Shown here one piece after another: positions 11,234 to 36,099 of a stretch of DNA of 64,000 bases. The stretch is from positions 62,001 through 126,000 of the forward strand of contig CANNZV010001117.1 in assembly GCA_947561585.1 (NCBI GenBank), written 5' to 3'. Source of the DNA: Caprella mutica (lineage: Eukaryota > Arthropoda > Malacostraca > Amphipoda > Caprellidae). A model generated the notes under the pieces. That model did no database searches and was not told where the DNA came from. It saw nothing but the letters and a program-made list of their open reading frames with translations. The position numbers and the translations under genes are program-made. Each line of letters opens with the position of its first letter. Within the stretch, counting starts at the first letter, position 1.

Positions 11234-11273
11234 TTATTCGTCAACAATGCATCTCCCCTCGAACTACGACAGG
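11234..11273 (+). CDS. 40-nt microexon, cassette copy 1
   Basis: A strong acceptor (TTTCTATTTCAG) and consensus donor (GTGAGT) enclose 40 nt. In the frame that stays open into the next exon it reads YSSTMHLPSNYDR, and the ATG in it (context CAACAATG) could be an initiation codon. The paralogue at 35,642-35,681 has AGG in place of that ATG, so it cannot start there. Confidence 0.5.
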
Positions 11274-11592: not shown

Positions 11593-11622
11593 GTAAGAAT
11601 TAGTATGAACAAATACATTTAA

Positions 11623-12897: not shown

Positions 12898-15800
12898 GCG
12901 GGAGCAGTCGGTGGCCAACCTCGCTCAGCACCAGAGAGGCTGCGAGGGTCGGGAGCCGAGAAAGGGACCGCGCCCATGACAGCGGACTGCGGTCATGATG
13001 ATGACAGTGTATGTACACTAGTATACAATTTATTTTGTACATTTGACAAAATCATTTTGTTTTCTCACAAAAGTCAAAACTATGATTTTATGAATGAGTA
13101 AGGGTTATAAAACTAAGCGGGTAATATGCAATTTTTGCAGGCGGGAGCAGTCGGTGGCCAACCTCGCTCAGCACCAGAGAGGCTGCGAGGGTCGGGAGCC
13201 GGAGAAGGGACCGCGCCCATGACAGCGGACTGCGATCATGATGATGACAGTGTATGTACACTAGTATACAATATATTTTGTACATTTGACAAAATCATTT
13301 TGTTTTCTCGCAAAAGTCAAAACTATGATTTTATGAATGAGTAAGGGTTATAAAACTAAGCGGGTAATATGCAATTTTTGCAGGCGGGAGCAGACGGTGG
13401 CCAACCTCGCTCAGCACCAGAGAGGCTGCGAGGGTCGGGAGCCGGAGAAGGGACCGCGCCCATGACAGCGGACTGGGGTCATGATGATGAGGATGACAGT
13501 GTATGTACAGTAGTATACAATATATTTTGTGCATTTGACAAAATCATTTTGTTTTTTTACAAAAGTCAAAACTATGATTCTATGAATGAGTAAGAGGTTA
13601 TAAAACTAAGCAGGTTATATGCAATTTTTGCAGGCAGGAGCAGTCGGTGGCCAACCTCGCTCAGCACCAGAGAGGTGGGTCGGGAGCCGGAGAAGGGACC
13701 GCGCCCATGACAGCGGACTGGGGTCATGATGATGAGGATGACAGTGTATGTACAGTAGTATACAATATATTTTGTGCACTTGACAAAATCATTTTGTTTT
13801 TTTACAAAAGTCAAAACTATGATTCTATGAATGAGTAAGGGGTTACAAAACTTAGCAGGTTATATGCAATTTTTGCAGGCAGGAGCAGTCGGTGGCCAAC
13901 CTCGCTCAGCACCAGAGAGTTTGCGAGGGTCGGGAGCCGGAGAAGAGACCGCGCCCATGACAGCGGACTGGGGTCATGATGATGAGAATGACAGTGTATG
14001 TACAGTAGTATACAATATATTTTGTGCATTTGACAAAATCATTTTGTTTTCTTACAAAAGTCAAAACTATGATTCTATGAATGAGTAAGGGGTTATAAAA
14101 CTAAGCGGGTTATATGCAATTTTTGCAGGCGGGAGCAGTCGGTGGCCAACCTCGCTCAGCACCAGAGAGGCTGCGAGGGTCGGGAGCCGGAGAAGAGACC
14201 GCGCCCATGACAGCGGACTGCGGTCATGATGATGACAGTGTATGTACACTAGTATACAATATATTTTGTACATTTGACAAAATCATTTTGTTTTCTCACA
14301 AAAGTCAAAACTATGATTTTATGAATGAGTAAGGGTTATAAAACTAAGTGGGTAATATGCAATTTTTGCAGACGGGAGCAGTCGGTGGCCAACCTCGCTC
14401 AGCACCAGAGAGGCTGCGAGGGTCGGGAGCCGGAGAAGGGACCGCGCCCATGACAGCGGACTGGGGTCATGATGATGAGGATGACATTGTATGTACAGAA
14501 GTATACAATATATTTTGTGCATTTGACAAAATCATTTTGTTTTCTTACAAAAGTCAAAACTATGATTCTATGAATGAGTAAGGGGTTATAAAACTAAGCG
14601 GGTTATATGCAATTTTTGCAGGCAGGAGCAGTCGGTGGCCAACCTCGCTCAGCACCAGAGAGTTTGCGAAGGTCGGGAGCCGGAGAAGGGACCGCGCCCA
14701 TGACAGCGGACTGGGGTCATGATGATGACAGTGTATGTACACTAGTTTACAATATATTTTGTACATTTGACAAAATCATTTTGTTTTCTCACAAAAATCA
14801 AAACTATGATTATATGAATGAGTAAGGGGTTACAAAACTTAGCAGGTTATATGCAATTTTTTCAGGCAGGAGCAGTCGGTGGCCAACCTCGCTCAGCACC
14901 AGAGAGTTTGCGAGGGTCGGGAGCCGGAGAAGGGACCGCGCCCATGACAGCGGACTGGGGTCATGATGATGAGGATGACAGTGTATGTACAGAAGTATAC
15001 AATATATTTTGTGCATTTTACAAAATCATTTTGTTTTCTTACAAAAGTCAAAACTATGATTCTATGAATGAGTAATAGGTTATAAAACTAAGCGGGTTAT
15101 ATGCAATTTTTGCAGGCAGGAGCAGTCGGTGGCCAACCTCGCTCAGCACCAGAGAGTTTGCGAAGGTCGGGAGCCGGAGAAGGGACTGCGCCCATGACAG
15201 CGGACTGGGGTCATGATGATGACAGTGTATGTACACTAGTTTACAATATATTTTTTACATTTGACCAAATCATTTTGTTTTCTCACAAAAGTCAAAACTA
15301 TGATTTTATGAATGAGTAAGGGTTATAAAACTAAGCGGGTAATATGCAATTTTTGCAGGCGGGAGCAGTCGGTGGCCAACCTCGCTCAGCACCAGAGAGG
15401 CTGCGAGGGTCGGGAGCCGGAGAAGGGACCGCGCCCATGACAGCGGACTGGGGTCATGATGATGAGGATGACAGTGTATGTACAGTAGTATACAATATAT
15501 TTTGTGCATTTGACAAAATCATTTTGTTTTCTTACAAAAGTCAAAACTATGATTCTATGAATGAGTAAGAGGTTATAAAACTAAGCGGGTTATATGCAAT
15601 TTTTGCAGGCAGGAGCACTCGGTGGCCAACATCGCTCAGCACCAGAGAGTTTGCGAAGGTCGGGAGCCGGAGAAGGGACTGCGCCCATGACAGCGGACTG
15701 GGGTCATGATGATGACAGTGTATGTACACTAGTTTACAATATATTTTTTACATTTGACCAAATCATTTTGTTTTCTCACAAAAGTCAAAACTATGATTTT

Positions 15801-18800
15801 ATGAATGAGTAAGGGTTATAAAACTAAGCGGGTAATATGCAATTTTTGCAGGCGGGAGCAGTCGGTGGCCAACCTCGCTCAGCACCAGAGAGGCTGCGAG
15901 GGTCGGGAGCCGGAGAAGGGACCGCGCCCATGACAGCGGACTGCGGTCATGATGATGACAGTGTATGTACACTAGTATACAATATATTTTGTACATTTGA
16001 CAAAATCATTTTGTTTTCTCACAAAAGTCAAAACTATGATTTTATGAATGAGTAAGGGTTATAAAACTAAGCGGGTAATATGCAATTTTTGCAGGCGGGA
16101 GCAGTCGGTGGCCAACCTCGCTCAGCACCAGAGAGGCTGCGAGGGTCGGGAGCCGGAGAAGGGACCGCGCCCATGACAGCGGACTGGGGTCATGATGATG
16201 AGGATGACAGTGTATATACAGTAGTATACAATATATTTTGTGCATTTGACAAAATCACTTTGTTTTCTTACAAAAGTCAAAACTATGATTCTATGAATGA
16301 GTAATGGGTTATAAAACTAAGCGGGTTATATGCAGTTTTTGCAGGCAGGAGCTGTCTGTGGCCAACCTCGCTCAGCACCAGAGAGGCTGCGAGGGTCGGG
16401 AGCCGGAGAAGAGACCGCGCCCATGACAGCGGACTGGGGTCATGATGATGAGGATGACAGTGTATGTACAGTAGTATACAACATATTTTGTGCATTTGAC
16501 AAAATCATTTTGTTTTCTTACAAAAGTCAAAACTATGATTCTATGAATGAGTAAGGGGTTATAAAACTAAGCGGGTTATATGCAATTTTTGCAGGCAGGA
16601 GCAGTCTGTGGCCAACCTCGCTCAGCACCAGAGAGGCTGCGAGGGTCGGGAGCCGGAGAAGGGACCGCGCCCATGATAGCGGACTGGGGTCATGATGATG
16701 AGGATGACAGTGTATGTACAGTAGTATACAACATATTTTGTGCATTTGACAAAATCATTTTGCTTTCTTACAAAAGTCAAAACTATGATTCTATGAATGA
16801 GTAAGGGGTTATAAAACTAAGCGGGTTATATGCAATTTTTGCAGGCAATAGCAGTCGGTGGCCAACCTCGCTCAGCACCAGAGAGGCTGTGAGAGTCGGG
16901 AGCCAAGAAAGGGACCGCGCCCATGACAGCGGACTGCGATCATGATGATGACAGTGTATGTACACTAGTATACAATATATTTCGTACATTTGACAAAATC
17001 ATTTTGTTTTCTTACAAAAGTCAAAACTATGATTCTATGAAGGAGTAAGGGGTTATAAAACTAAGCGGGTTATATGCAATTTTTGCAGGCGGGAGCAGTC
17101 GGTGGCCAGCCTCGCTTGGCATCAGAGAGACTGTGTTTTTTGGTAGCCGGAAGAGAGGTCGTGCCCATGACAGCGGACTGGGGTCATGATGATGATGATG
17201 ACAGTGTATGTAAACTAGTATACAATATATTTTGTACATTTGACAAAATCATTTTGTTTTCTCACAAAAGTCAAAACTATGATTTTATGAATGAGTAAGG
17301 GTTATAAAACTAAGCGGGTAATATGCAATTTTTGCAGGCGGGAGCAGTCGGTGGCCAACCACGCTCAGCACCAGAGAGGCTGCGAGGGTCGGGAGCCGGA
17401 GAAGGGACTGCGCCAATGACAGCGGACTGGGGTCATGATGATGAGGATTACAGTGTATGTACAGAAGTATACAATATATTTTGTGCATTTTACAAAATCA
17501 TTTTGTTTTCTTACAAAAGTCAAAACTATGATTCTATGAATGAGTAAGAGGTTATAAAACTAAGCGGGTTATATGCAATTTTTGCAGGCAGGAGCAGTCG
17601 GTGGCCAACCTCGCTCAGCACCAGAGAGTTTGCGAAGGTCGGGAGCCGGAGAAGGGACTGCGCCCATGACAGCGGACTGGGGTCATGATGATGACAGTGT
17701 ATGTACACTAGTTTACAATATATTTTTTACATTTGACCAAATCATTTTGTTTTCTCACAAAAGTCAAAACTATGATTTTATGAATGAGTAAGGGTTATAA
17801 AACTAAGCGGGTAATATGCAATTTTTGCAGGCGGGAGCAGTCGGTGGCCAACCTCGCTCAGCACCAGAGAGGCTGCGAGGGTCGGGAGCCGGAGAAGGGA
17901 CCGCGCCCATGACAGCGGACTGGGGTCATGATGATGAGGATGACAGTGTATGTACAGTAGTATACAATATATTTTGTGCATTTGACAAAATCATTTTGTT
18001 TTTTTACAAAAGTCAAAACTATGATTCTATGAATGAGTAAGAGGTTATAAAACTAAGCAGGTTATATGCAATTTTTGCAGGCAGGAGCAGTCGGTGGCCA
18101 ACCTCGCTCAGCACCAGAGAGGTGGGTCGGGAGCCGGAGAAGGGACCGCGCCCATGACAGCGGACTGGGGTCATGATGATGAGGATGACAGTGTATGTAC
18201 AGTAGTATACAATATATTTTGTGCACTTGACAAAATCATTTTGTTTTTTTACAAAAGTCAAAACTATGATTATATGAATGAGTAAGGGGTTACAAAACTT
18301 AGCAGGTTATATGCAATTTTTTCAGGCAGGAGCAGTCGGTGGCCAACCTCGCTCAGCACCAGAGAGTTTGCGAGGGTCGGGTACCGGAAAAGGGACCGCG
18401 CCCATGACAGCGGACTTGGGTCATGATGATGAGGATGACAGTGTATGTACAGTAGTATACAATATATTTTGTGCATTTGACAAAATCATTTTGTTTTCTT
18501 ACAAAAGTCAAAACTATGATTCTATGAATGAGTAAGGGGTTATAAAACTAAGCGGGTTATATGCAATTTTTGCAGGCGGGAGCAGTCGGTGGCCAACCTC
18601 GCTCAGCACCAGAGAGGCTGCGAGGGTCGGGAGCCGGAGAAGAGACCGCGCCCATGACAGCGGACTGCGGTCATGATGATGACAGTGTATGTACACTAGT
18701 TTACAATATATTTTGTACATTTGACAAAATCATTTTGTTTTCTCACAAAAGTCAAAACTATGATTTTATGAATGAGTAAGGGTTATAAAACTAAGCGGGT

Positions 18801-21800
18801 AATATGCAATTTTTGCAGGCGGGAGCAGTCGGTGGCCAACCTCACTCAGCACCAGAGAGGCTGCGAGGGTCGGGAGCCGGAGAAGGGACCGCGCCCATGA
18901 CAGCGGACTGGGGTCATGATGATGAGGATGACAGTGTATGTACAGAAGTATACAATATATTTTGTGCATTTTACAAAATCATTTTGTTTGCTTACAAAAG
19001 TCAAAACTATGATTCTATGAATGAGTAAGAGGTTATAAAACTAAGCGGGTTATATGCAATTTTTGCAGGCAGGAGCAGTCGGTGGCCAACATCGCTCTGC
19101 ACCAGAGAGTTTGCGAAGGTCGGGAGCCGGAGAAGGGACTGCGCCCATGACAGCGGACTGGGGTCATGATGATGACAGTGTATGTACACTAGTTTACAAT
19201 ATATTTTTTACATTTGACCAAATCATTTTGTTTTCTCACAAAAGTCAAAACTATGATTTTATGAATGAGTAAGGGTTATAAAACTAAGCGGGTAATATGC
19301 AATTTTTGCAGGCGGGAGCAGTCGGTGGCCAACCTCGCTCAGCACCAGAGAGGCTGCGAGGGTCGGGAGCTGGAGAAGGGACCGCGCCCATGACAGCGGA
19401 CTGCGGTCATGATGATGACAGTGTATGTACACTAGTATACAATATATTTTGTACATTTGACAAAATCATTTTGTTTTCTCACAAAAGTCAAAACTATGAT
19501 TTTATGAATGAGTAAGGGTTATAAAACTAAGCGGGTAATATGCAATTTTTGCAGGCGGGAGCAGTCGGTGGCCAACCTCGCTCAGCACCAGAGAGGCTGC
19601 GAGGGTCGGGAGCCGGAGAAGGGACCGCGCCCATGACAGCGGACTGGGGTCATGATGATGAGGATGACAGTGTATATACAGTAGTATACAATATATTTTG
19701 TGCATTTGACAAAATCACTTTGTTTTCTTACAAAAGTCAAAACTATGATTCTATGAATGAGTAAGGGGTTATAAAACTAAGCGGGTTATATGCAGTTTTT
19801 GCAGGCAGGAGCTGTCTGTGGCCAACCTCGCTCAGCACCAGAGAGGCTGCGAGGGTCGGGAGCCGGAGAAGAGACCGCGCCCATGACAGCGGACTGGGGT
19901 CATGATGATGAGGATGACAGTGTATGTACAGTAGTATACAACATATTTTGTGCATTTGACAAAATCATTTTGTTTTCTTACAAAAGTCAAAACTATGATT
20001 CTATGAATGAGTAAGGGGTTATAAAACTAAGCGGGTTATATGCAATTTTTGCAGGCAGGAGCAGTCTGTGGCCAACCTCGCTCAGCACCAGAGAGGCTGC
20101 GAGGGTCGGGAGCCGGAGAAGGGACCGCGCCCATGATAGCGGACTGGGGTCATGATGATGAGGATGACAGTGTATGTACAGTAGTATACAACATATTTTG
20201 TGCATTTGACAAAATCATTTTGCTTTCTTACAAAAGTCAAAACTATGATTCTATGAATGAGTAAGGGGTTATAAAACTAAGCGGGTTATATGCAATTTTT
20301 GCAGGCAGGAGCAGTCGGTGGCCAACCTCGCTCAGCACCAGAGAGGCTGCGAGAGTCGGGAGCCAAGAAAGGGACCGCGCCCATGACAGCGGACTGCGAT
20401 CATGATGATGACAGTGTATGTACACTAGTATACAATATATTTCGTACATTTGACAAAATCATTTTGTTTTCTTACAAAAGTCAAAACTATGATTCTATGA
20501 ATGAGTAAGGGGTTATAAAACTAAGCGGGTTATATGCAATTTTTGCAGGCGGGAGCAGTCGGTGGCCAGCCTCGCTTGGCATCAGAGAGACTGTGTTTTT
20601 TGGTAGCCGGAAGAGAGGTCGTGCCCATGACAGCGGACTGGGGTCATGATGATGATGATGACAGTGTATGTAAACTAGTATACAATATATTTTGTACATT
20701 TGACAAAATCATTTTGTTTTCTCACAAAAGTCAAAACTATGATTTTATGAATGAGTAAGGGTTATAAAACTAAGCGGGTAATATGCAATTTTTGCAGGCG
20801 GGAGCAGTCGGTGGCCAACCACGCTCAGCACCAGAGAGGCTGCGAGGGTCGGGAGCCGGAGAAGGGACTGCGCCAATGACAGCGGACTGGGGTCATGATG
20901 ATGAGGATTACAGTGTATGTACAGTAGTATACAATATATTTTGTGCATTTGACAAAATCATTTTGTTTTCTTACAAAAGTCAAAACTATGATTCTATGAA
21001 TGAGTAAGGGGTTATAAAACTAAGCGGGTAATATGCAATTTTTGCAGGCGGGAGCAGTCGGTGGCCAACCTCGCTCAGCACCAGAGAGGCTGCGAGGGTC
21101 GGGAGCCGGAGAAGGGACCGCGCCCATGACAGCGGACTGGGGTCATGATGATGACAGTGTATGTACACTAGTATACAATATATTTTGTACATTTGACAAA
21201 ATCATTTTGTTTTCTCACAAAAGTCAAAACTATGATTTTATGAATGAGTAAGGGTTAAAAAACTAAGCGGGTAATATGCAATTTTTGCAGGCGGGAGCAG
21301 TCGGTGGCCAACCTCGCTCAGCACCAGAGAGTTTGCGAAGGTCGGGAGCCGGAGAAGGGACCGCGCCCATGACAGCGGACTGGGGTCATGATGATGACAG
21401 TGTATGAACACTAGTATACAATATATTTTGTACATTTGACAAAATCATTTTGTTTTCTCACAAAAGTCAAAACTATGATTTTATGAATGAGTAAGTGTTA
21501 AAAAACTAAGCGGGTAATATGCAATTTTTGCAGGCGGGAGCAGTCGGTGGCCAACCTCGCACAGCACCAGAGAGTTTGCGAAGGTCGGGAGCCGGAGAAG
21601 GGACCGCGCCCATGACAGCGGACTGGGGTCATGATGATGAGGATGACAGTGTATGTACAGTAGTATACAATATATTTTGTGCATTTGACAAAATCATTTT
21701 GTTTTCTTACAAAAGTCAAAACTATGATTCTATGAATGAGTAAGGGTTAATAAAACTAAGTGGGTTATATGCAATTTTAGCAGGCGGGAGCAGTCGGTGG

Positions 21801-24800
21801 CCAACCTCGCTCAGCACCAGTTAGGCAGCGAGGGTCGGGAGCCGGAGAAGAGACCGCGCCCATGACAGCGGACTGCGGTCATGATGATGACAGTGTATGT
21901 ACACTAGTATACAATATATTTTGTACATTTGACAAAATCATTTTGTTTTCTCACAAAAGTCAAAACTATGATTTTATGAATGAGTAAGGGTTATAAAACT
22001 AAGCGGGTAATATGCAATTTTTGCAGGCGGGAGCAGTCGGTGGCCAACCACGCTCAGCACCAGAGAGGCTGCGAGGGTCGGGAGCCGGAGAAGGGACTGC
22101 GCCAATGACAGCGGACTGGGGTCATGATGATGAGGATTACAGTGTATGTACAGTAGTATACAATATATTTTGTGCATTTGACAAAATCATTTTGTTTTCT
22201 TACAAAAGTCAAAACTATGATTCTATGAATGAGTAAGGGTTATAAAACTAAGCGGGTAATATGCAATTTTTGCAGGCGGGAGCAGTCGGTGGCCAACCTC
22301 GCTCAGCACCAGAGAGGCTGCGAGGGTCGGGAGCCGGAGAAGGGACCGCGCCCATGACAGCGGACTGGGGTCATGATGATGAGGATGACAGTGTATGTAC
22401 AGAAGTATACAATATATTTTGTGCATTTGACAAAATCATTTTGTTTTCTTACAAAAGTCAAAACTATGATTCTATGAATGAGTAAGGGGTTATAAAACTA
22501 AGCGGGTTATATGCAATTTTTGCAGGCAGGAGCAGTCGGTGGCCAACCTCGCTCAGCACCAGAGAGTTTGCGAAGGTCGGGAGCCGGAGAAGGGACCGCG
22601 CCCATGACAGCGGACTGGGGTCATGATGATATCAGTGTATGTACACTAGTATACAATATATTTTGTACATTTGACAAAATCATTTTGTTTTCTCACAAAA
22701 GTCAAAACTATGATTTTATGAATGAGTAAGGGTTAAAAAACTAAGCGGGTAATATGCAATTTTTGCAGGCGGGAGCAGTCGGTGGTCAACCTCGCTCAGC
22801 ACCAGAGAGTTTGCGAAGGTCGGGAGCCGGAGAAGGGACCGCGCCCATGACAGCGGACTGGGGTCATGATGATGAGGATGACAGTGTATGTACAGTAGTA
22901 TACAATATATTTTGTGCATTTGATGAAATCATTTTGTTTTCTTACAAAAGTCAAAACTATGATTCTATGAATGAGTAAGGGTTAATAAAACTAAGTGGGT
23001 TATATGCAATTTTTGCAGGCGGGAGCAGTCGGTGGCCAACCTCGCTCAGCACCAGTTAGGCAGCGAGGGTCGGGAGCCGGAGAAGAGACCGCGCCCATGA
23101 CAGCGGACTGCGGTCATGATGATGACAGTGTATGTACACTAGTATACAATATATTTTGTATATTTGACAAAATCATTTTGTTTTCTTACAAAAGTCAAAA
23201 CTATGATTCTCTGAATGAGTAAGGGGTTATAAAACTAAGCGGGTTATATGCAATTTTTGCAGGCAGGAGCAGTCGGTGGCCAACCTCGCTCAGCACCAGA
23301 GAGTTTGCGAAGGTCGGGAGCCGGAGAAGGGACCGCGCCCATGACAGCGGACTGGGGTCATGATGATGACAGTGTATGTACACTAGTATACAATATATTT
23401 TGTACATTTGACAAAATCATTTTGTTTACTCACAAAAGTCAAAACTATGATTTTATGAATGAGTAAGGGTTAAAAAACTAAGCGGGTAATATGCAATTTT
23501 TGCAGGCGGGAGCAGTCGGTGGCCAACCTCGCTCAGCACCAGAGAGTTTGCGAAGGTCGGGAGCCGGAGAAGGGACCGCGCCCATGACAGCGGACTGGGG
23601 TCATGATGATGACAGTGTATGTACACTAGTATACAATATATTTTGTACATTTGACAAAATCATTTTGTTTTCTCACAAAAGTCAAAACTATGATTTTATG
23701 AATGAGTAAGGGTTAAAAAACTAAGCGGGTAATATGCAATTTTTGCAGGCGGGAGCAGTCGGTGGCCAACCTCGCTCAGCACCAGAGAGTTTGCGAAGGT
23801 CGGGAGCCGGAGAAGGGACCGCGCCCATGACAGCGGACTGGGGTCATGATGATGAGGATGACAGTGTATGTACAGTAGTATACAATATATTTTTTGCATT
23901 TGACAAAATCATTTTGTTTTCTTACAAAAGTCAAAACTATGATTCTATGAATGAGTAAGGGTTAATAAAACTAAGTGGGTTATATGCAATTTTTGCAGGC
24001 GGGAGCAGTCGGTGGCCAACCTCGCTCAGCACCAGTTAGGCAGCGAGGGTCGGGAACCGGAGAAGAGACCGCGCCCATGACAGCGGACTGCGGTCATGAT
24101 GATGACAGTGTATGTACACTAGTATACAATATATTTTGTACATTTGACAAAATCATTTTGTTTTCTCACAAAAGTCAAAACTATGATTTTATGAACGAGT
24201 AAGGGTTATAAAACTAAGCGGGTAATATGCAATTTTTGCAGGCGGGAGCAGTCGGTGGCCAACCACGCTCAGCACCAGAGAGGCTGCGAGGGTCGGGAGC
24301 CGGAGAAGGGACTGCGCCAATGACAGCGGACTGGGGTCATGATGATGAGGATTACAGTGTATGTACAGTAGTATACAATATATTTTGTGCATTTGACAAA
24401 ATCATTTTGTTTTCTTACAAAAGTCAAAACTATGATTCTATGAATGAGTAAGGGTTATAAAACTAAGCGGGTAATATGCAATTTTTGCAGGCGGGAGCAG
24501 TCGGTGGCCAACCTCGCTCAGCACCAGAGAGGCTGCGAGGGTCGGGAGCCGGATAAGGGACCGCGCCCATGACAGCGGACTGGGGTCATGATGATGAGGA
24601 TGACAGTGTATGTACAGAAGTATACAATATATTTTGTGCATTTGACAAAATCATTTTGTTTTCTTACAAAAGTCAAAACTATGATTCTATGAATGAGTAA
24701 GGGGTTATAAAACTAAGCGGGTTATATGCAATTTTTGCAGGCAGGAGCAGTCGGTGGCCAACCTCGCTCAGCACCAGAGATTTTGCGAAGGTCGGGAGCC

Positions 24801-27800
24801 GGAGAAGGGACCGCGCCCATGACAGCGGACTGGGGTCATGATGATGACAGTGTATGTCCACTAGTATACAATATATTTTGTACATTTGACAAAATCATTT
24901 TGTTTTCTCACAAAAGTCAAAACTATGATTTTATGAATGAGTAAGGGTTAAAAAACTAAGCGGGTAATATGCAATTTTTGCAGGCGGGAGCAGTCGGTGG
25001 CCAACCTCGCTCAGCACCAGAGAGTTTGCGAAGGTCGGGAGCCGGAGAAGGGACCGCGCCCATGACAGCGGACTGGGGTCATGATGATGAGGATGACAGT
25101 GTATGTACAGTAGTATACAATATATTTTGTGCATTTGACAAAATCATTTTGTTTTCTTACAAAAGTCAAAACTATGATTCTATGAATGAGTAAGGGTTAA
25201 TAAAACTAAGTGGGTTATATGCAATTTTTGCAGGCGGGAGCAGTCGGTGGCCAACCTCGCTCAGCACCAGTTAGGCAGCGAGGGTCGGGAGCCGGAAAAG
25301 AGACCGCGCCCATGACAGCGGACTGGGGTCATGATGATGAGGATGACAGTGTATGTACAGTAGTATACAATATATTTTGTGCATTTGACAAAATCATTTT
25401 GTTTTCTTACAAAAGTCAAAACTATGATTCTATGAATGAGTAAGGGGTAATAAAACTAAGCGGGTTATATGCAATTTTTGCAGGCGGGAGCAGTCGGTGG
25501 CCAACCTCGCTCAGCACCAGAGAGGCCGCGAGGGTCGGGAGCCGGAGAAGAGACCGCGCCCATGACAGCGGACTGCGGTCATGATGATGACAGTGTATGT
25601 ACACTAGTATACAATATATTTTGTACATTTGACAAAATCATTCTGTTTCTCACAAAAGTCAAAACTATGATTTTATGAATGAGTAAGGGTTATAAAACTA
25701 AGCGGGTAATATGCAATTCTTGCAGGCGGGAGCAGTCGGTGGCCAACCTCGCTCAGCACCAGAGAGGCTGCGAGGGTCGGGAGCCGGAGAAGGGACCGCG
25801 CCCATGACAGCGGACTGGGGTCATGATGATGAGGATGACAGTGTATGTACAGTAGTATACAATATATTTTGTGCATTTGACAAAATCATTTTGTTTTCGT
25901 ACAAAAGTCAAAACTATGATTCTATGAATGAGTAAGGGGTTATAAAACTAAGCGGGTTATATGCAATTTTTGCAGGCGGGAGTAGTCGGTGGCCAACCTC
26001 GCTCAGCACCAGAGAGGCTGCGAGGGTCGGGAGCCGGAGAAGAGACCGCGCCCATGACAGCGGACTGCGGTCATGATGATGACAGTGTATGTACACTAGT
26101 ATACAATATATTTTGTACATTTGACAAAATCATTTTGTTTTCTCACAAAAGTCAAAACTATGATTTTATGAATGAGTAAGGGTTATAAAACTAAGCGGGT
26201 AATATGCAATTTTTGCAGGCGGGAGCAGTCGGTGGCCAACCTCGCTCAGCACCAGAGAGGCTGCGAGGGTCGGGAGCCGGAGAAGGGACCGCGCCCATGA
26301 CAGCGGACTGGGGTCATGATGATGAGGATGACATTGTATGTACAGAAGTATACAATATATTTTGTGCATTTGACAAAATCATTTTGTTTTCTTACAAAAG
26401 TCAAAACTATGATTCTATGAATGAGTAAGGGGTTATAAAACTAAGCGGGTTATATGCAATTTTTGCAGGCAGGAGCAGTCGGTGGCCAACCTCGCTCAGC
26501 ACCAGAGAGTTTGCGAAGGTCGGGAGCCGGAGAAGGGACCGCGCCCATGACAGCGGACTGGGGTCATGATGATGACAGTGTATGTACACTAGTTTACAAT
26601 ATATTTTGTACATATGACAAAATCATTTTGTTTTCTCACAAAAATCAAAACTATGATTATATGAATGAGTAAGGGGTTACAAAACTTAGCAGGTTATATG
26701 CAATTTTTTCAGGCAGGAGCAGTCGGTGGCCAACCTCGCTCAGCACCAGAGAGTTTGCGAGGGTCGGGAACCGGAGAAGGGACCGCGCCCATGACAGCGG
26801 ACTGGGGTCATGATGATGAGGATGACAGTGTATGTACAGTAGTATACAATATATTTTGTGCATTTGACAAAATCATTTTGTTTTCTTACAAAAGTCAAAA
26901 CTATGATTCTATGAATGAGTAAGGGGTTATAAAACTAAGCGGGTTATATGCAATTTTTGCAGGCGGGAGCAGTCGGTGGCCAACCTCGCTCAGCACCAGA
27001 GAGGCTGCGAGGGTCGGGAGCCGGAGAAGAGACCGCGCCCATGACAGCGGACTGCGGTCATGATGATGACAGTGTATGTACACTAGTATACAATATATTT
27101 TGTACATTTGACAAAATCATTTTGTTTTCTCACAAAAGTCAAAACTATGATTTTATGAATGAGTAAGGGTTATAAAACTAAGCGGGTAATATGCAATTTT
27201 TGCAGGCGCGAGCAGTCGGTGGCCAACCTCACTCAGCACCAGAGAGGCTGCGAGGGTCGGGAGCCGGAGAAGGGACCGCGCCCATGACAGCGGACTGGGG
27301 TCATGATGATGAGGATGACAGTGTATGTACAGAAGTATACAATATATTTTGTGCATTTTACAAAATCATTTTGTTTTCTTACAAAAGTCAAAACTACGAT
27401 TCTATGAATGAGTAAGAGGTTATAAAACTAAGCGGGTTATATGCAATTTTTGCAGGCAGGAGCAGTCGGTGGCCAACCTCGCTCAGCACCAGAGAGTTTG
27501 CGAAGGTCGGGAGCCGGAGAAGGGACTGCGCCCATGACAGCGGACTGGGGTCATGATGATGACAGTGTATGTACACTAGTTTACAATATATTTTTTACAT
27601 TTGACCAAATCATTTTGTTTTCTCACAAAAGTCAAAACTATGATTTTATGAATGAGTAAGGGTTATAAAACTAAGCGGGTAATATGCAATTTTTGCAGGC
27701 GGGAGCAGTCGGTGGCCAACCTCGCTCAGCACCAGAGAGGCTGCGAGGGTCGGGAGCCGGAGAAGGGACCGCGCCCATGACAGCGGACTGGGGTCATGAT

Positions 27801-30800
27801 GATGAGGATGACAGTGTATGTACAGTAGTATACAATATATTTTGTGCATTTGACAAAATCATTTTGTTTTTTTACAAAAGTCAAAACTATGATTCTATGA
27901 ATGAGTAAGAGGTTATAAAACTTAGCAGGTTATATGCAATTTTTTCAGGCAGGAGCAGTCGGTGGCCAACCTCGCTCAGCACCAGAGAGTTTGCGAGGGT
28001 CGGGAACCGGAGAAGGGACCGCGCCCATGACAGCGGACTTGGGTCATGATGATGAGGATGACAGTGTATGTACAGTAGTATACAATATATTTTGTGCATT
28101 TGACAAAATCATTTTGTTTTCTTACAAAAGTCAAAACTATGATTCTATGAATGAGTAAGGGGTTATAAAACTAAGCGGGTTATATGCAATTTTTGCAGGC
28201 GGGAGCAGTCGGTGGCCAACCTCGCTCAGCACCAGAGAGGCTGCGAGGGTCGGGAGCCGGAGAAGAGACCGCGCCCATGACAGCGGACTGCGGTCATGAT
28301 GATGACAGTGTATGTACACTAGTATACAATATATTTTGTACATTTGACAAAATCATTTTGTTTTCTCACAAAAGTCAAAACTATGATTTTATGAATGAGT
28401 AAGGGTTATAAAACTAAGCGGGTAATATGCAATTTTTGCAGGCGGGAGCAGTCGGTGGCCAACCTCACTCAGCACCAGAGAGGCTGCGAGGGTCGGGAGC
28501 CGGAGAAGGGACCGCGCCCATGACAGCGGACTGGGGTCATGATGATGAGGATGACAGTGTATGTACAGAAGTATACAATATATTTTGTGCATTTTACAAA
28601 ATCATTTTGTTTTCTTACAAAAGTCAAAACTATGATTCTATGAATGAGTAAGAGGTTATAAAACTAAGCGGGTTATATGCAATTTTTGCAGGCAGGAGCA
28701 GTCGGTGGCCAACCTCGCTCAGCACCAGAGAGTTTGCGAAGGTCGGGAGCCGGAGAAGGGACTGCGCCCATGACAGCGGACTGGGGTCATGATGATGACA
28801 GTGTATGTACACTAGTTTACAATATATTTTTTACATTTGACCAAATCATTTTGTTTTCTCACAAAAGTCAAAACTATGATTTTATGAATGAGTAAGGGTT
28901 ATAAAACTAAGCGGGTAATATGCAATTTTTGCAGGCGGGAGCAGTCGGTGGCCAACCTCGCTCAGCACCAGAGAGGCTGCGAGGGTCGAGAGCCGGAGAA
29001 GGGACCGCGCCCATGACAGCGGACTGCGGTCATGATGATGACAGTGTATGTACACTAGTATACAATATATTTTGTACATTTGACAAAATCATTTTGTTTT
29101 CTCACAAAAGTCAAAACTATGATTTTATGAATGAGTAAGGGTTATAAAACTAAGCGGGTAATATGCAATTTTTGCAGGCGGGAGCAGTCGGTGGCCAACC
29201 TCGCTCAGCACCAGAGAGGCTGCGAGGGTCGGGAGCCGGAGAAGGGACCGCGCCCATGACAGCGGACTGGGGTCATGATGATGAGGATGACAGTGTATAT
29301 ACAGTAGTATACAATATATTTTGTGCATTTGACAAAATCACTTTGTTTTCTTACAAAAGTCAAAACTATGATTCTATGAATGAGTAAGGGGTTATAAAAC
29401 TAAGCGGGTTATATGCAGTTTTTGCAGGGAGGAGCTGTCTGTGGCCAACCTCGCTCAGCACCAGAGAGGCTGCGAGGGTCGGGAGCCGGAGAAGAGACCG
29501 CGCCCATGACAGCGGACTGGGGTCATGATGATGAGGATGACAGTGTATGTACAGTAGTATACAACATATTTTGTGCATTTGACAAAATCATTTTGTTTTC
29601 TTACAAAAGTCAAAACTATGATTCTATGAATGAGTAAGGGGTTATAAAACTAAGCGGGTTATATGCAATTTTTGCAGGCGGGAGCAGTCGGTGGCCAACC
29701 TCACTCAGCACCAGAGAGGCTGCGAGGGTCGGGAGCCGGAGAAGGGACCGCGCCCATGACAGCGGACTGGGGTCATGATGATGAGGATGACAGTGTATGT
29801 ACAGTAGTATACAACATATTTTGTGCATTTGACAAAATCATTTTGTTTTCTCACAAAAGTCAAAACTATGATTTTATGAATGAGTAAGGGTTATAAAACT
29901 AAGCGGGTAATATGCAATTTTTGCAGGCGGGAGCAGTCGGTGGCCAACCTCACTCAGCACCAGAGAGGCTGCGAGGGTCGGGAGCCGGAGAAGGGACCGC
30001 GCCCATGACAGCGGACTGGGGTCATGATGATGAGGATGACAGTGTATGTACAGAAGTATACAATATATTTTGTGCATTTTACAAAATCATTTTGTTTTCT
30101 TACAAAAGTCAAAACTATGATTCTATGAATGAGTAAGAGGTTATAAAACTAAGCGGGTTATATGCAATTTTTGCAGGCAGGAGCAGTCGGTGGCCAACCT
30201 CGCTCAGCACCAGAGAGTTTGCGAAGGTCGGGAGCCGGAGAAGGGACTGCGCCCATGACAGCGGACTGGGGTCATGATGATGACAGTGTATGTACACTAG
30301 TTTACAATATATTTTTTACATTTGACCAAATCATTTTGTTTTCTCACAAAAGTCAAAACTATGATTTTATGAATGAGTAAGGGTTATAAAACTAAGCGGG
30401 TAATATGCAATTTTTGCAGGCGGGAGCAGTCGGTGGCCAACCTCGCTCAGCACCAGAGAGGCTGCGAGGGTCGGGAGCCGGAGAAGGGACCGCGCCCATG
30501 ACAGCGGACTGCGGTCATGATGATGACAGTGTATGTACACTAGTATACAATATATTTTGTACATTTGACAAAATCATTTTGTTTTCTCACAAAAGTCAAA
30601 ACTATGATTTTATGAATGAGTAAGGGTTATAAAACTAAGCGGGTAATATGCAATTTTTGCAGGCGGAGCAGTCGGTGGCCAACCTCGCTCAGCACCAGAG
30701 AGGCTGCGAGGGTCGGGAGCCGGAGAAGGGACCGCGCCCATGACAGCGGACTGGGGTCATGATGATGAGGATGACAGTGTATATACAGTAGTATACAATA

Positions 30801-33800
30801 TATTTTGTGCATTTGACAAAATCACTTTGTTTTCTTACAAAAGTCAAAACTATGATTCTATGAATGAGTAAGGGGTTATAAAACTAAGCGGGTTATATGC
30901 AGTTTTTGCAGGCAGGAGCTGTCTGTGGCCAACCTCGCTCAGCACCAGAGAGGCTGCGAGGGTCGGGAGCCGGAGAAGAGACCGCGCCCATGACAGCGGA
31001 CTGGGGTCATGATGATGAGGATGACAGTGTATGTACAGTAGTATACAACATATTTTGTGCATTTGACAAAATCATTTTGTTTTCTTACAAAAGTCAAAAC
31101 TATGATTCTATGAATGAGTAAGGGGTTATAAAACTAAGCGGGTTATATGCAATTTTTGCAGGCAGGAGCAGTCTGTGGCCAACCTCGCTCAGCACCAGAG
31201 AGGCTGCGAGGGTCGGGAGCCGGAGAAGGGACCGCGCCCATGATAGCGGACTGGGGTCATGATGATGAGGATGACAGTGTATGTACAGTAGTATACAACA
31301 TATTTTGTGCATTTGACAAAATCATTTTGTTTTCTTACAAAAGTCAAAACTATGATTCTATGAATGAGTAAGGGGTTATAAAACTAAGCGGGTTATATGC
31401 AATTTTTGCAGGCAGGAGCAGTCGGTGGCCAACCTCGCTCAGCACCAGAGAGGCTGCGAGAGTCGGGAGCCAAGAAAGGGACCGCGCCCATGACAGCGGA
31501 CTGCGATCATGATGATGACAGTGTATGTACACTAGTATACAATATATTTCGTACATTTGACAAAATCATTTTGTTTTCTTACAAAAGTCAAAACTATGAT
31601 TCTATGAATGAGTAAGGGGTTATAAAACTAAGCGGGTTATATGCAATTTTTGCAGGCGGGAGCAGTCGGTGGCCAGCCTCGCTTGGCATCAGAGAGACTG
31701 TGTTTTTTGGTAGCCGGAAGAGAGGTCGTGCCCATGACAGCGGACTGGGGTCATGATGATGATGATGACAGTGTATGTAAACTAGTATACAATATATTTT
31801 GTACATTTGACAAAATCATTTTGTTTTCTCACAAAAGTCAAAACTATGATTTTATGAATGAGTAAGGGTTATAAAACTAAGCGGGTAATATGCAATTTTT
31901 GCAGGCGGGAGCAGTCGGTGGCCAACCACGCTCAGCACCAGAGAGGCTGCGAGGGTCGGGAGCCGGAGAAGGGACTGCGCCAATGACAGCGGACTGGGGT
32001 CATGATGATGAGGATTACAGTGTATGTACAGTAGTATACAATATATTTTGTGCATTTGACAAAATCATTTTGTTTTCTTACAAAAGTCAAAACTATGATT
32101 CTATGAATGAGTAAGGGGTTATAAAACTAAGCGGGTAATATGCAATTTTTGCAGGCGGGAGCAGTCGGTGGCCAACCTCGCTCAGCACCAGAGAGGCTGC
32201 GAGGGTCGGGAGCCGGAGAAGGGACCGCGCCCATGACAGCGGACTGGGGTCATGATGATGACAGTGTATGTACACTAGTATACAATATATTTTGTACATT
32301 TGACAAAATCATTTTGTTTTCTCACAAAAGTCAAAACTATGATTTTATGAATGAGTAAGGGTTAAAAAACTAAGCGGGTAATATGCAATTTTTGCAGGCG
32401 GGAGCAGTCGGTGGCCAACCTCGCTCAGCACCAGAGAGTTTGCGAAGGTCGGGAGCCGGAGAAGGGACCGCGCCCATGACAGCGGACTGGGGTCATGATG
32501 ATGACAGTGTATGTACACTAGTATACAATATATTTTGTACATTTGACAAAATCATTTTGTTTTCTCACAAAAGTCAAAACTATGATTTTATGAATGAGTA
32601 AGGGTTAAAAAACTAAGCGGGTAATATGCAATTTTTGCAGGCGGGAGCAGTCGGTGGCCAACCTCGCACAGCACCAGAGAGTTTGCGAAGGTCGGAAGCC
32701 GGAGAAGGGACCGCGCCCATGACAGCGGACTGGGGTCATGATGATGAGGATGACAGTGTATGTACAGTAGTATACAATATATTTTGTGCATTTGACAAAA
32801 TCATTTTGTTTTCTTACAAAAGTCAAAACTATGATTTTATGAATGAGTAAGGGTTAAAAAACTAAGCGGGTAATATGCAATTTTTGCAGGCGGGAGCAGT
32901 CGGTGGCCAACCTCGCTCAGCACCAGAGAGTTTGCGAAGGTCGGGAGCCGGAGAAGGGACCGCGCCCATGAGAGCGGACTGGGGTCATGAGGATGACAGT
33001 GTATGTACAGTAGTATACAATATATTTTGTGCATTTGATAAAATCATTTTGTTTTCTTACAAAAGTCAAAACTATGATTCTATGAATGAGTAAGGGGTTA
33101 TAAAACTAAGCGGGTTATATGCAATTTTTGCAGGCGGGAGCAGTCGGTGGCCAACCTCGCTCAGCACCAGAGAGGCTGCGAGCGTCGGGAGCCGGAGAAG
33201 GGACCGCGCCCATGACAGCGGACTGGGGTCATGATGATGAGGATGACAGTGTATGTACAGAAGTATACAATATATTTTGTGCATTTGACAAAATCATTTT
33301 GTTTTCTTACAAAAGTCAAAACTATGATTCTATGAATGAGTAAGGGGTTATAAAACTAAGCGGGTTATATGCCATTTTTGCAGGCAGGAGCAGTCGGTGG
33401 CCAACCTCGCTCAGCACCAGAGAGTTTGCGAAGGTCGGGAGCCGGAGAAGGGACCGCGCCCATGACAGCGGACTGGGGTCATGATGATGACAGTGTATGT
33501 ACACTAGTATACAATATATTTTGTACATTTGACAAAATCATTTTGTTTTCTCACAAAAGTCAAAACTATGATTTTATGAATGAGTAAGGGTTAAAAAACT
33601 AAGCGGGTAATATGCAATTTTTGCAGGCGGGAGCAGTCGGTGGCCAACCTCGCTCAGCACCAGAGAGTTTACGAAGGTCGGGAGCCGGAGAAGGGACCGC
33701 GCCCATGACAGCGGACTGGGGTCATGATGATGAGGATGACAGTGTATGTACAGTAGTATACAATATATTTTGTGCATTTGACAAAATCATTTTGTTTTCT

Positions 33801-34987
33801 TACAAAAGTCAAAACTATGATTCTATGAATGAGTAAGGGTTAATAAAACTAAGCGGGTTATATGCAATTTTTGCAGGCAGGAGCAGTCTGTGGCCAACCT
33901 CGCTCAGCACCAGAGAGGCTGCGAGGGTCGGGAGCCGGAGAAGGGACCGCGCCCATGATAGCGGACTGGGGTCATTATGATGAGGATGACAGTGTATGTA
34001 CAGTAGTATACAACATATTTTGTGCATTTGACAAAATCATTTTGTTTTCTTACAAAAGTCAAAACTATGATTCTATGAATGAGTAAGGGGTTATAAAACT
34101 AAGCGGGTTATATGCAATTTTTGCAGGCAGGAGCAGTCGGTGGCCAACCTCGCTCAGCACCAGAGAGGCTGCGAGAGTCGGGAGCCAAGAAAGGGACCGC
34201 GCCCATGACAGCGGACTGCGATCATGATGATGACAGTGTATGTACACTAGTATACAATATATTTCGTACATTTGACAAAATCATTTTGTTTTCTTACAAA
34301 AGTAAAACTATGATTCTATGAATGAGTAAGGGGTTATAAAACTAAGCGGGTTATATGCAATTTTTGCAGGCGGGAGCAGTCGGTGGCCAACATCGCTCAG
34401 CACCAGAGAGGCTGCGAGGGTCGGGAGCCGGAGAAGGGACCGAGCCCATGACAGCGGACTGGGGTCATGATGATGATGATGACAGTGTATGTACAGTAGT
34501 ATACAATATATTTTGTGCATTTGACAAAATCATTTTGTTTTATTACAAAAGTCAAAACTATGATTCTATGAATGAGTAAGGGGTTATAAAACTAAGCGGG
34601 TTATATGCAATTTTTTACAGGCGGGAGCAGTCGGTGGCCAGCCTCGCTTGGCATCAGAGAGACTGTGTTTTTTGGTAGCCGGAAGAGAGGTCGTGCCCAT
34701 GACAGCGGACTGGGGTCATGATGATGAGGATGACAGTGTATGTACAGTAGTATACAATATATTTTGTGCATTTGACAAAATCACTTTGTTTTCTTACAAA
34801 AGTCAAAACTATGATTCTATGAATGAGTAAGGGGTTATAAAACTAAGCGGGTTATATGCAGTTTTTGCAGGCGGGAGCTGTCTGTGGCCAACCTCGCTCA
34901 GCACCAGAGAGGCTGCGAGGGTCGGGAGCCGGAGAAGGGACCGCGCCCATGACAGCGGACTGGGGTCATGATGATGAGGATGACAGT
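12898..34987 (+). CDS. Putative giant repeat protein encoded by ~90 symmetric phase-0 exons
   Basis: Each unit has a branch-like ACTAAG, a TTTTTGCAG acceptor, an open exon and a GTATGT-type donor. Exons are 111 nt (37 codons) or 117 nt (39 codons) and start and end in phase 0, so the reading frame survives any exon number. The consensus module begins AGAVGGQPRSAPERLRGSG and ends GTAPMTADWGHDD(ED)DS. The first half is basic and Gly/Pro/Ala-rich; the end is acidic with an invariant HDD. There is no signal peptide, membrane segment or cysteine framework within the array itself. If all exons were joined the product would be about 3,400 residues of low-complexity repeat. By my reading 85 of 90 exons are intact. 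No known family is recognised. The alternative is an untranscribed macrosatellite derived from one exon-intron unit. RNA evidence would decide. Confidence 0.45.
13634..13745 (+). pseudogene. Array unit 4: module exon with 5-nt deletion
   Basis: AGAGAGGTGGGTCGGG replaces AGAGAGGCTGCGAGGGTCGGG, giving a 112-nt exon that shifts the frame if included. Unit 22 carries the identical deletion, so the two share a duplication history. Confidence 0.85.
16845..16955 (+). pseudogene. Array unit 17: module exon with in-frame TGA
   Basis: The exon starts GCAATAGCA instead of GCGGGAGCA and changes CTG CGA to CTG TGA at 16,890-16,892. Its higher-order partner, unit 31 (20,305), keeps CGA, so this nonsense change is younger than the 3.46-kb duplication. 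Confidence 0.85.
17089..17205 (+). CDS. Array unit 18: divergent module (CFLV type)
   Basis: Residues 10-25 differ strongly from the consensus: RLASERLCFLVAGREVV replaces RSAPERLRGSGAGEGTA. This introduces Cys and a short hydrophobic stretch while keeping frame, length, HDDDDDS end and splice sites. Identical or near-identical copies occur as units 32 (20,549), 77 (31,656) and 89 (34,621), marking higher-order blocks. Confidence 0.6.
18081..18192 (+). pseudogene. Array unit 22: module exon with 5-nt deletion
   Basis: Same 5-nt deletion as unit 4, 4,447 bases (18 units) away. The spacing to unit 23 is 245 rather than 250, as the deletion predicts. Confidence 0.85.
24491..24607 (+). pseudogene. 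Array unit 48: module exon with in-frame TAA
   Basis: GGA GAA is changed to GGA TAA (24,554-24,556) by a single substitution. Splice sites are intact. Confidence 0.85.
30663..30778 (+). pseudogene. Array unit 73: module exon with 1-nt deletion
   Basis: The exon begins GCGGAGCAG instead of GCGGGAGCAG. The 1-nt loss also explains why the offset to the paralogous block changes from 11,108 to 11,107 at this point. The frame is lost downstream if the exon is included. Confidence 0.85.
34621..34737 (+). CDS. Array unit 89: CFLV-type module with altered acceptor
   Basis: This is the fourth copy of the divergent module. Its acceptor is TTTTTTACAG rather than TTTTTGCAG, and the following intron is the TACAGTAG (type B) form instead of the TAAACTAG form of the other three copies. 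It is therefore a recombinant between unit types. Confidence 0.6.
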
Positions 34988-35120
34988 GTATGTACAGTAG
35001 TATACAACATATTTTGTGCATTTGACAAAATCATTATGTTTTCTTACAAAAGTCAAAACTATGATTCTATGAATGAGTAAGGGGTTATAAAACTAAGCGG
35101 GTTATATGCAATTTTTGCAG

Positions 35121-35150
35121 GCAGGAGCCTGTTGCAGGCAATTATTTATG
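35121..35150 (+). pseudogene. Truncated last array unit (unit 91) and array edge
   Basis: After a normal acceptor only GCAGGAGC of the module remains. The sequence then changes to CTGTTGCAGGCAATTATTTATGGGG and enters the 3' cassette, whose homologue starts near 10,418. This is the right-hand breakpoint of the array. Confidence 0.85.
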
Positions 35151-35780
35151 GGGATGATAGAATTTGTGTTAACAAAAGTGTGATACGGCCGAACGTGTCA
35201 CACTTATTATAGTATATATTTTATAGTCTGATTATAGTATAGAACTACATAGATAGACATTAGATAAGGCTACCATATAATACATGCATGCTCATTTGTC
35301 TCACAAAAAAATGAATAAAGACAAGTCCAGAAGATTCGACAAATCCGTAACTATTATTTGAATGAAGATTTATGATATGTGGAATAATTGTGTGTAAATG
35401 TACCTACCTAGATATTTGTAGTTAATCTACTTACTTATTCTTCATACTGTTGCAAAAATCAGAGTTTGGGGGGAGGGCGGGGGGCGGGGCTCAGCAAACG
35501 GCGTATCGACTAAACTATTAAATCTGTGGCCTGCCTAATACAAAACGAAGCAGAAAAAAACTCAAAGACAATCGAATTTATGAATTTTAATAATTCATAT
35601 TAAAATCATTTTAGTTTTGAACTTTTCTATTTCTATTTCAGTTATTCGTCAACAAGGCATCTCCTCTCGAACTACGACAGAGTGAGTATTGAGTATTTCA
35701 AATAGAAAAATTAAACCCAAAAATCAAATCAAACTTCAATCTAGGAAATTAATTGATAAATATATGACAGATACGATTTA
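35150..35780 (+). repeat. 3' cassette, copy 2
   Basis: Paralogue of 10,425-11,340 without the 300-bp MITE. It contains a GGGGGGAGGGCGGGGGGCGGGG run at about 35,466-35,487 and the 40-nt microexon. Confidence 0.9.
35642..35681 (+). CDS. 40-nt microexon, cassette copy 2
   Basis: Acceptor TTTCTATTTCAG and donor GTGAGT as in copy 1. In the frame continuous with the next exon it reads YSSTRHLLSNYDR. Because it is 40 nt long, it cannot be joined in this frame directly to a phase-0 array exon. If joined in phase 0 it reads LFVNKASPLELRQ and changes the frame of the following exon. A further possible 25-nt copy (35,820-35,844, ..CGAACAAAGGCAGA|GTAGGG) follows. Confidence 0.45.
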
Positions 35781-35991
35781 AATGAAATGTGAAAATCTAT
35801 AATTTTTGTACAATTTTAGAACTCTCTGCTCGAACAAAGGCAGAGTAGGGTTTTAAACCCTACCTTTTGGTTTAAAATATAAACCAAAATATTCAGTCGA
35901 ATTTTCATCCAGGATATTTATTGATTTATTTCATTTCGATTAAAAGAAATGTATTTTTTATCGTATTTTAACACCATTGTTCATTTTACAG

Positions 35992-36099
35992 TCAGAAGTA
36001 ACGGATACTCAAGAAAACTATTCGAAAGAATACACATACTTCAAACCGAGTAAATCAGACGGTTTTGTCTATCAATTGAGAAAATTTCCAAAGTATTGA
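35992..36099 (+). CDS. Candidate terminal exon (SEVTDTQE type, 35 residues)
   Basis: After acceptor TTCATTTTACAG the exon reads SEVTDTQENYSKEY and stays open for 35 codons to TGA 36,097-36,099, ending YQLRKFPKY. It can follow a phase-0 array exon directly, or follow the microexon in its alternative frame. The start (first 8 codons) and the upstream 140 bases of intron are duplicated at 45,592, where the continuation differs. This supports it as a real exon with a divergent C-terminus. Function unknown. Confidence 0.5.
   Translation, partial: SEVTDTQENYSKEYTYFKPSKSDGFVYQLRKFPKY

What the first reader, a model, noticed from the sequence alone, without database searches (positions are those of the whole stretch)
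12898..34987. About 90 tandem, symmetric, phase-0 exon-intron units: a possible giant self-similar gene
Seen: 90 head-to-tail units, each with acceptor, 111- or 117-nt open module and GTATGT-type donor; indels within modules are almost all multiples of three; 85 of 90 exons keep the frame. Inference: the module could be spliced in any number, giving repeat proteins of hundreds to about 3,400 residues and easy copy-number evolution. I recognise no known family with this module.
Basis: partly seen in the sequence, partly recalled or inferred. Interest (0 to 1): 0.95.

Follow-up and report, generated by a model that had tools for sequence, protein, structure and literature searches.

The report
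Ninety-copy tandem array of one exon
A single exon with its intron has been copied about ninety times in a row next to the gene it seems to come from; similar arrays occur inside some known repeat-protein genes, but this one drifts like unconstrained DNA and may well not make a giant protein.

Summary
In detail: 90 head-to-tail units at 12898-35120, each a 111- or 117-nt exon (63.7% GC; three lengths differ) plus a 131-134-nt intron (27.9% GC). GT...AG is intact in 90 of 90, and 85 of 90 exons are open in frame.

The likely source lies in the window. A four-exon gene model (A-B-C-D, 5538-11622, 291 codons with stop) carries the module twice: at the end of exon A and as exon B, 244 bp apart. 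The array exon is a hybrid, B-like in front and A-like behind; array introns average 94% identity to intron A-B. Unequal crossing-over between A and B, then block duplication, explains it.

The "giant gene" reading is weak: 51 nonsynonymous, 17 synonymous, 2 nonsense of 70 distinct exon substitutions, a neutral ratio; one antisense frame is also open in 85 of 90; the multiple-of-three indel is one change shared by 38 units; full inclusion stops at residue 144; exon A's unique part has no second copy, and the array's last exon is cut after about 10 nt.

The architecture is a known kind. Transcription and organism could not be tested.

The parts
5538..6056 (+). Exon A of the source gene model (start codon at 5538; an in-frame TGA lies just upstream). 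Its last 111 nt (5946-6056) are a divergent copy of the module, ending at a GTATGT donor, phase 0.
   Evidence: Stop-to-stop frame of 205 codons at 5532-6149 (running into the intron), the longest of 4,361 frames in 1-12800 and 35201-55100; frames of the 22-bp repeat and the DIRS-like element are longer. Tail 69% identical on average to the array exons.
6057..6189 (+). Intron A-B, 133 nt; apparent source of the array introns
   Evidence: 94.3% mean identity to the 90 array introns
6190..6305 (+). Exon B, 116 nt, leaves in phase 2 at GTAAAA; if that donor is not used the frame stops at TAA 6307-6309. Second divergent module copy.
   Evidence: 75.6% mean identity to the array exons; exit phase fits exon C
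6415..6494 (+). Relic of the module intron downstream of exon B
   Evidence: Over 80 bp: 91% identical to the first array intron, 90% to intron A-B, 87.5% to the last array intron
11234..11273 (+). Exon C, 40 nt
   Evidence: TTTCAG before, GTGAGT after; entered in phase 2 it reads YSSTMHLPSNYDR
11425..11622 (+). Exon D, terminal exon, 65 codons and stop
   Evidence: Frame 0 open; the other two frames hold several stops
12898..35120 (+). Array of 90 exon-intron units: exons 111/117 nt (112 in two, 116 in one), introns 131-134 nt, phase-0 arrangement
13634..13745 (+). Unit 4 exon, 5-nt deletion, out of frame (same lesion in unit 22, 18081-18192)
   Evidence: a fully spliced array stops here, at residue 144
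16845..16955 (+). Unit 17 exon, in-frame stop
24491..24607 (+). Unit 48 exon, in-frame stop
30663..30778 (+). Unit 73 exon, 1-nt deletion (coordinates worked out from the unit lengths)
   Evidence: (gap sequence printed)
35121..35135 (+). Broken right end: about 10 nt of a further module exon, then a junction
35136..35786 (+). Second copy of part of the B-C intron and the start of the C-D intron, with exon C' at 35642-35681
   Evidence: Pairs with 10408-11374 (pieces of 83% and 88% identity); C' frame kept
35992..36099 (+). Terminal exon D' (SEVTDTQE...RKFPKY*); a third, shortened copy starts at 45592

Best explanation
The array is a recent tandem amplification of one internal exon plus its intron, derived from the A-B-C-D gene beside it. 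Shown by sequence: exon A's tail and exon B are two homologous modules 244 bp apart, separated by the intron that the array repeats; the array exon is B-like in its first two thirds and mostly A-like in its last third; blocks of units are near-identical copies of each other. Inferred: an unequal crossover inside a short stretch that A and B share made the hybrid, symmetric phase-0 exon; further unequal exchange between the nearly identical units raised the number to 90, in a duplicate gene copy that lost its exon A and most of its exit exon. Most of the units stay open because they are young and homogenised, not because a long repeat protein is now selected. Most likely the array is now a drifting, satellite-like by-product of a once coding exon, possibly transcribed, not a working giant gene. 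I put the origin at about 0.85 and the 'not a working giant gene' part at about 0.6.
For: Chimera: of the columns where exons A and B differ and the array consensus matches one of them, the first 84 alignment columns are 20 B: 2 A and the rest 9 A: 2 B. Array introns average 94.3% identity to intron A-B. The A-tail to B offset is 244 bp, the array period 242-251. Neutral pattern: 70 distinct exon substitutions = 51 N, 17 S, 2 nonsense; expected fractions under four mutation models 0.68-0.71, 0.25-0.28, 0.036-0.056. Exons vary at more sites than introns (odds ratio 1.86, p = 0.021). One antisense frame is open in 85 of 90. Growth by blocks: 9 (partly overlapping) block pairs of 4-11 units at 0.24-0.91% divergence; neighbours no more alike than distant units. 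Broken ends: no second copy of exon A's unique part, and left flank 11623-12890 matches nothing else in the window; the right end runs into the homologue of the B-C intron.
Against: Splice sites are intact in 90 of 90. Units with stops are fewer than a rough neutral draw predicts (2 seen, 13-18 expected), though not significantly (P 0.07-0.18). The N:S interval is wide (S fraction 0.15-0.37), so weak constraint or diversifying selection is not excluded. The antisense control is not independent of the sense sequence. Exon A could splice straight into the array in phase 0. Greater exon than intron variation is also reported for expressed repeat genes (spider silk, as told in PMC2576457). No transcript data; the gene model itself rests on motifs and frames.
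Confidence: 0.55

Rival explanations
1. One reading: a working gene that makes large repeat proteins. The array is spliced, from exon A or an unseen 5' exon, the five broken exons are skipped or end the message early, and copy number varies between individuals.
For: 85 of 90 exons open and phase 0, GT-AG 90 of 90. Exon A's donor is phase 0 and fits; the units belong to a neighbouring gene model with a coherent frame. Similar genes exist.
Against: Neutral N:S; first break at unit 4, so full inclusion stops at residue 144; array exit phase 0 does not fit the D' frame, which needs entry into C' in phase 2. No 5' exon recognised at the array, though only homology to exon A was looked for, and promoters were not looked for with a suitable model.
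Confidence: 0.25
2. The array is transcribed and spliced, but as a source of alternative internal exons or of non-coding RNA: exon A joins one or a few modules, then ends at the short frame in the broken last unit (35121-35183) or through C'.
For: Phase fits from A to array; the partial last exon has a 20-codon frame to a stop and an AATAAA at 35314; array to C' to D' also runs 33 codons, out of the D' frame, before a stop.
Against: The gene model A-B-C-D ends at D, 1.3 kb before the array, so transcription would have to run on; no expression data.
Confidence: 0.15
3. The array was dropped in as a unit, for example by a mobile element or an extrachromosomal circle; a 10-bp repeat AATTATTTAT lies on both sides.
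For: Left copy 12882-12891, just before the first exon; right copy 35140-35149, 11 nt past the TRF end of the array.
Against: In the windows of the random control the match counted 9 nt (one base was cut off); 40 of 4,000 random pairs share 9 nt or more and 21 share 10 or more, some of these from overlapping draws. No exact inverted match of 13 nt or more between 11601-12900 and 35111-37000, one of 12. The left flank does not match the left side of the 10408 copy.
Confidence: 0.04
4. The intron is a mobile intron (introner) that spread, which would explain introns more alike than exons between A and the array.
For: Intron identity 94% against exon A-tail identity 69%.
Against: The gap is mostly explained by the exon being a hybrid: the array is B-like, not A-like, over most of its length. 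With most of the array masked, the intron sequence was seen in this window only downstream of exons A and B and at the array's two unmasked ends.
Confidence: 0.01

Closest known systems
Schistosoma mansoni polymorphic mucins, SmPoMuc (PMC2576457; passages seen)
   Same: One exon (exon 2) with its flanking introns occurs as genomic tandem repeats, up to about 20; concerted evolution and recombination among repeats.
   Different: Repeat unit about 1 kb rather than 250 bp, fewer copies, transcripts known. Sequence relation not tested.
Spider flagelliform-type modular silk genes (as described in the discussion of PMC2576457; the original paper recalled, not read)
   Same: Genomic repeats of exons and introns; introns more homogenised than exons.
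   Different: Exons there said to evolve under purifying selection; here the within-array pattern is neutral.
NBPF/Olduvai repeats (PMC9584774, passages seen) and other human genes with an array wholly inside them, DMBT and LPA (PMC2588610, passages seen)
   Same: Repeat unit carries exons (and introns in NBPF), tandem; NBPF has higher-order blocks.
   Different: Units about 1.5-1.6 kb in NBPF; established genes.
Chicken BG genes (PMC5938342; passages seen, parts of the abstract among them)
   Same: Many short exons in a row (about 27-38, mostly of 21 nt) encode a repeat tail; unequal crossing-over among BG genes makes hybrid genes.
   Different: Exons with a split codon, coiled-coil heptads, expressed; here phase 0, 37 or 39 residues, no expression known.
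Gene-derived satellite DNA (general knowledge, no paper read)
   Same: Tandem array with higher-order blocks and neutral drift.
   Different: Here the unit keeps a complete exon-intron anatomy.

Membership tests
Gene with an intragenic tandem exon-intron array (SmPoMuc / modular silk / NBPF type) | Head-to-tail repeats, each with exon(s) and intron sequence | tested here: met
   90 units
Gene with an intragenic tandem exon-intron array (SmPoMuc / modular silk / NBPF type) | Repeated exons symmetric in phase, frame kept on joining | tested here: inconclusive
   85 of 90 kept; 5 broken, the first at unit 4
Gene with an intragenic tandem exon-intron array (SmPoMuc / modular silk / NBPF type) | Array lies between a 5' start exon and a 3' exon compatible in phase | tested here: inconclusive
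   No copy of exon A's unique part at the array; the D' frame needs phase-2 entry into C', the array leaves in phase 0. Splicing from the upstream exon A, an unrecognised 5' exon, or an end in the broken last unit is not excluded
Gene with an intragenic tandem exon-intron array (SmPoMuc / modular silk / NBPF type) | Transcribed and spliced | not testable with these tools
   No RNA data held
Gene with an intragenic tandem exon-intron array (SmPoMuc / modular silk / NBPF type) | Coding constraint on the repeat | tested here: inconclusive
   51 N: 17 S: 2 X of 70 distinct substitutions, no sign of constraint, but the interval is wide and stop-bearing units are somewhat few (P 0.07-0.18)
Gene-derived satellite array | Higher-order block duplications, homogenised units | tested here: met
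Gene-derived satellite array | No coding constraint, no protein product | tested here: inconclusive
   No constraint seen; product not testable
NBPF/Olduvai proteins proper | Module matches the family's domain model | tested here: not met
   No Pfam family reaches its cut-off for three joined modules; that Pfam holds an Olduvai model is recalled
SmPoMuc or silk proteins proper | Sequence homology of module or flanking exons | not tested
   No direct comparison made; general searches found nothing

The most novel reading that the evidence does not exclude
The locus is a live length-and-composition generator. About 90 interchangeable phase-0 exons with nearly identical splice sites are joined in varying number from exon A's start, broken modules being skipped, so that one locus gives a spread of repeat-protein lengths between cells and individuals while unequal crossover keeps resetting the count.
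Probability: 0.1. Interest if true: 0.8.

Novelty: new member of a known kind. Interest (0 to 1): 0.42.

Why it matters
It is an unusually clear case of how an internal exon can multiply: likely source exons and expanded hybrid product lie within about 30 kb. That lets one test how new repeat proteins start, and how often such arrays are drift rather than function. It also warns that an open frame in 85 of 90 copies is not by itself evidence of coding when the copies are young.

Tried and rejected
Protein look-ups found nothing for exon A+B (161 candidates, none at E <= 0.001) or for 12 joined intact modules (only the 7,997 candidates sharing most words were scored, none at E <= 0.01). As a control, the same database gives 71 hits for the integrase part of the window's DIRS-like element, so it holds sequence of that eukaryotic kind (inference); it need not hold this genome. 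Pfam: none for A+B at E <= 0.1; only weak sub-cut-off matches for three joined modules and none for D and D' at E <= 1. Rfam and tRNA (bacterial settings): none. DNA patterns in viral contigs (two) and prokaryote contigs (one), and 503 bases of the array against plasmids and phages: none; those tools warn that records of the window's own genome may be left out. The papers library holds no text with any of three module peptides.

I first read 'introns 94%, exon A tail 69%' as possible positive selection or a mobile intron; the hybrid origin of the exon removes most of that. I first took exon B's TAA as the gene's end; the phase-2 donor just before it gives a better model through C and D. Notebook entry 2 calls the stretch shared by A and B 14 nt; by the alignment printed it is 12. 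Three apparent substitutions at columns 108-110 were gap-placement artefacts and were dropped (73 became 70).

Structure predictions without an alignment were of low confidence (exon A mean pLDDT 64.8, pTM 0.22, mostly helices; one module 68.1, pTM 0.13, no secondary structure assigned), so no fold search was made. The promoter scan uses a bacterial model and says nothing here.
Full report
What is there. TRF reports one array at 12891-35128. Parsing gives 90 units: exons of 117 nt in 49 units, 111 in 38, 112 in 2 and 116 in 1; introns 131-134 nt. Exons are 63.7% GC, introns 27.9%; mean pairwise identity is 92.9% for exons and 95.5% for introns, and 72 of 90 full units are distinct. GT and AG are intact in 90 of 90. 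The consensus module reads AGAVGGQPRSAPERLRGSGAGEGTAPMTADWGHDDEDDS (for example unit 11), and the consensus intron carries stops in all three frames.

Where it came from. At 5538-6056 a start codon opens a 173-codon exon (A) whose last 111 nt resemble the module. A 133-nt intron follows, then exon B at 6190. The intron averages 94.3% identity to the array introns, exon A's tail 69.2% and exon B 75.6% to the array exons. resolves the contrast: where A and B differ and the consensus matches one of them, the first 84 alignment columns favour B 20 to 2 and the remaining columns favour A 9 to 2 (the cut at 84 was set in the script before its result was seen). The switch lies around a 12-nt stretch that A and B share (CGCGCCCCTGAC). 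So the founder exon is B in front and A behind, which is what an unequal exchange between exon A's tail and exon B would leave: a new exon with B's acceptor and A's phase-0 donor. The A-to-B offset, 244 bp, is the array period. The counts come from a consensus and one alignment; the direction of change is inferred.

The source gene model. Exon B can leave at GTAAAA (6306) in phase 2. Exon C (11234-11273, 40 nt) then restores phase 0 into exon D (11425-11622), which is open for 65 codons only in that frame. The whole reads 291 codons, the stop being the last. Downstream of the array C' and D' repeat this pattern (35642-35681, 35992-36099), and a third, shortened D'-like exon lies at 45592. D and D' themselves do not resemble each other in the tblastn. 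The model rests on splice motifs and frames, not transcripts. No family was found for it.

How the array grew. Neighbouring units are no more alike than distant ones (mean 13.4 differences at lag 1; the lowest values among lags 1-59 were 9.4 at lag 45 and 10.1 at lag 59), and nine partly overlapping pairs of blocks of 4-11 units differ by 0.24-0.91%, the longest being units 25-35 and 70-80. Two subtypes exist: 111-nt exons mostly with 132-nt introns, 117-nt exons mostly with 133-nt introns, with 7 and 7 units of the crossed types. This is the usual mark of unequal crossing-over of blocks, with some exchange inside units (inference).

Is it coding now? Of 70 distinct exon substitutions, 51 are nonsynonymous, 17 synonymous and 2 nonsense by consensus context; neutral expectations under four mutation models are 68-71%, 25-28% and 3.6-5.6%. 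One of the two nonsense changes is a real stop in only 1 of its 5 carriers. Exons vary at more sites than introns (p = 0.021). There are three distinct exon indels (6, 5, 1 nt; in 38, 2 and 1 units) against four in introns, all 1 nt (in 37, 1, 1 and 1 units). One antisense frame is open in 85 of 90 exons as well; it is a control for openness, though not independent of the sense sequence. Against this: stops hit 2 units where 13-18 would be expected if nonsense status were dealt out at random among variants, P 0.07-0.18, so some past selection is possible. A message of all 90 exons would stop at residue 144; runs of intact modules are 3, 12, 4, 25, 24 and 17.

The ends. The left end follows 1.27 kb of sequence (11623-12890) that matches nothing else in the window at E <= 0.01, and there is no second copy of exon A's unique 136 residues at E <= 5. 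The right end keeps about 10 nt of one more exon and then enters sequence homologous to the B-C intron of the source gene (10408 onward pairs with 35136 onward). So the second gene copy seems to have lost its phase-2 exit exon. A 10-bp repeat AATTATTTAT lies at 12882-12891 and 35140-35149, which could mark an insertion but is weak: 40 of 4,000 random pairs do as well as the 9 nt that the control's windows held.

Comparison. Tandem exon-plus-intron repeats inside genes are known: SmPoMuc exon 2 with flanking introns (PMC2576457, passages), which also describes modular spider silk with introns more homogenised than exons; NBPF, DMBT and LPA (PMC9584774 and PMC2588610, passages); chicken BG with rows of 21-nt exons (PMC5938342, passages). 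I also saw passages of PMC2812944 on internal tandem repeats in human paralogues, which is less close. The present array is compact and long in copy number, but of that kind in anatomy. Whether it is a working gene like those is open, and the evidence leans against. In eight paper searches (listings only, apart from the five papers named) I saw no report of this module; that is not a claim that none exists.

Limits. The organism is not known to me; spliceosomal-type introns, a DIRS-like element and transposase-like pieces point to an animal or other eukaryote (inference). The own-genome search did not complete in nine tries. Copy number depends on the assembly, which I could not check.

Noticed in passing
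56055-61184: DIRS-like retroelement (name by inference): a frame at 58036-60216 with RNase H and weak reverse transcriptase matches and a frame at 58923-61184 with a tyrosine-recombinase match; the best relative in a protein search is 65% identical over the integrase part.
   Followed up: partly
6703-6730 and 9926-9953: Inverted 28-bp match (96%), perhaps the ends of a DNA transposon about 3.25 kb long, sitting in the inferred B-C intron.
   Followed up: no
49188-50166: Three exon-like stretches with good splice motifs that read as one short protein ending in a stop; no Pfam family above cut-off.
   Followed up: partly
4531-4791 and 1530-1706: Fold-back palindromes, 89% and 88% self-complementary, partly alike.
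   Followed up: no
55295-55903: 22-bp tandem repeat, 26.8 copies (CTTTCCGATCGGAATGTACCAT), with open frames on both strands.
   Followed up: no
45471-45664: Third copy of the intron end and start of the D' terminal exon, with an early stop.
   Followed up: partly
array units starting at 17089, 20549, 31656 and 34621: A divergent module subtype (...PRLASERLCFLVAGREVVPMTADWG...) with many changes in its middle, still in frame, in four units.
   Followed up: partly
39612-39863, 43956-44824: Transposase-like fragments, perhaps mariner/Tc1: a PAX-type DNA-binding match above its cut-off at 39612, DDE_3 and helix-turn-helix matches below cut-off near 44 kb.
   Followed up: no
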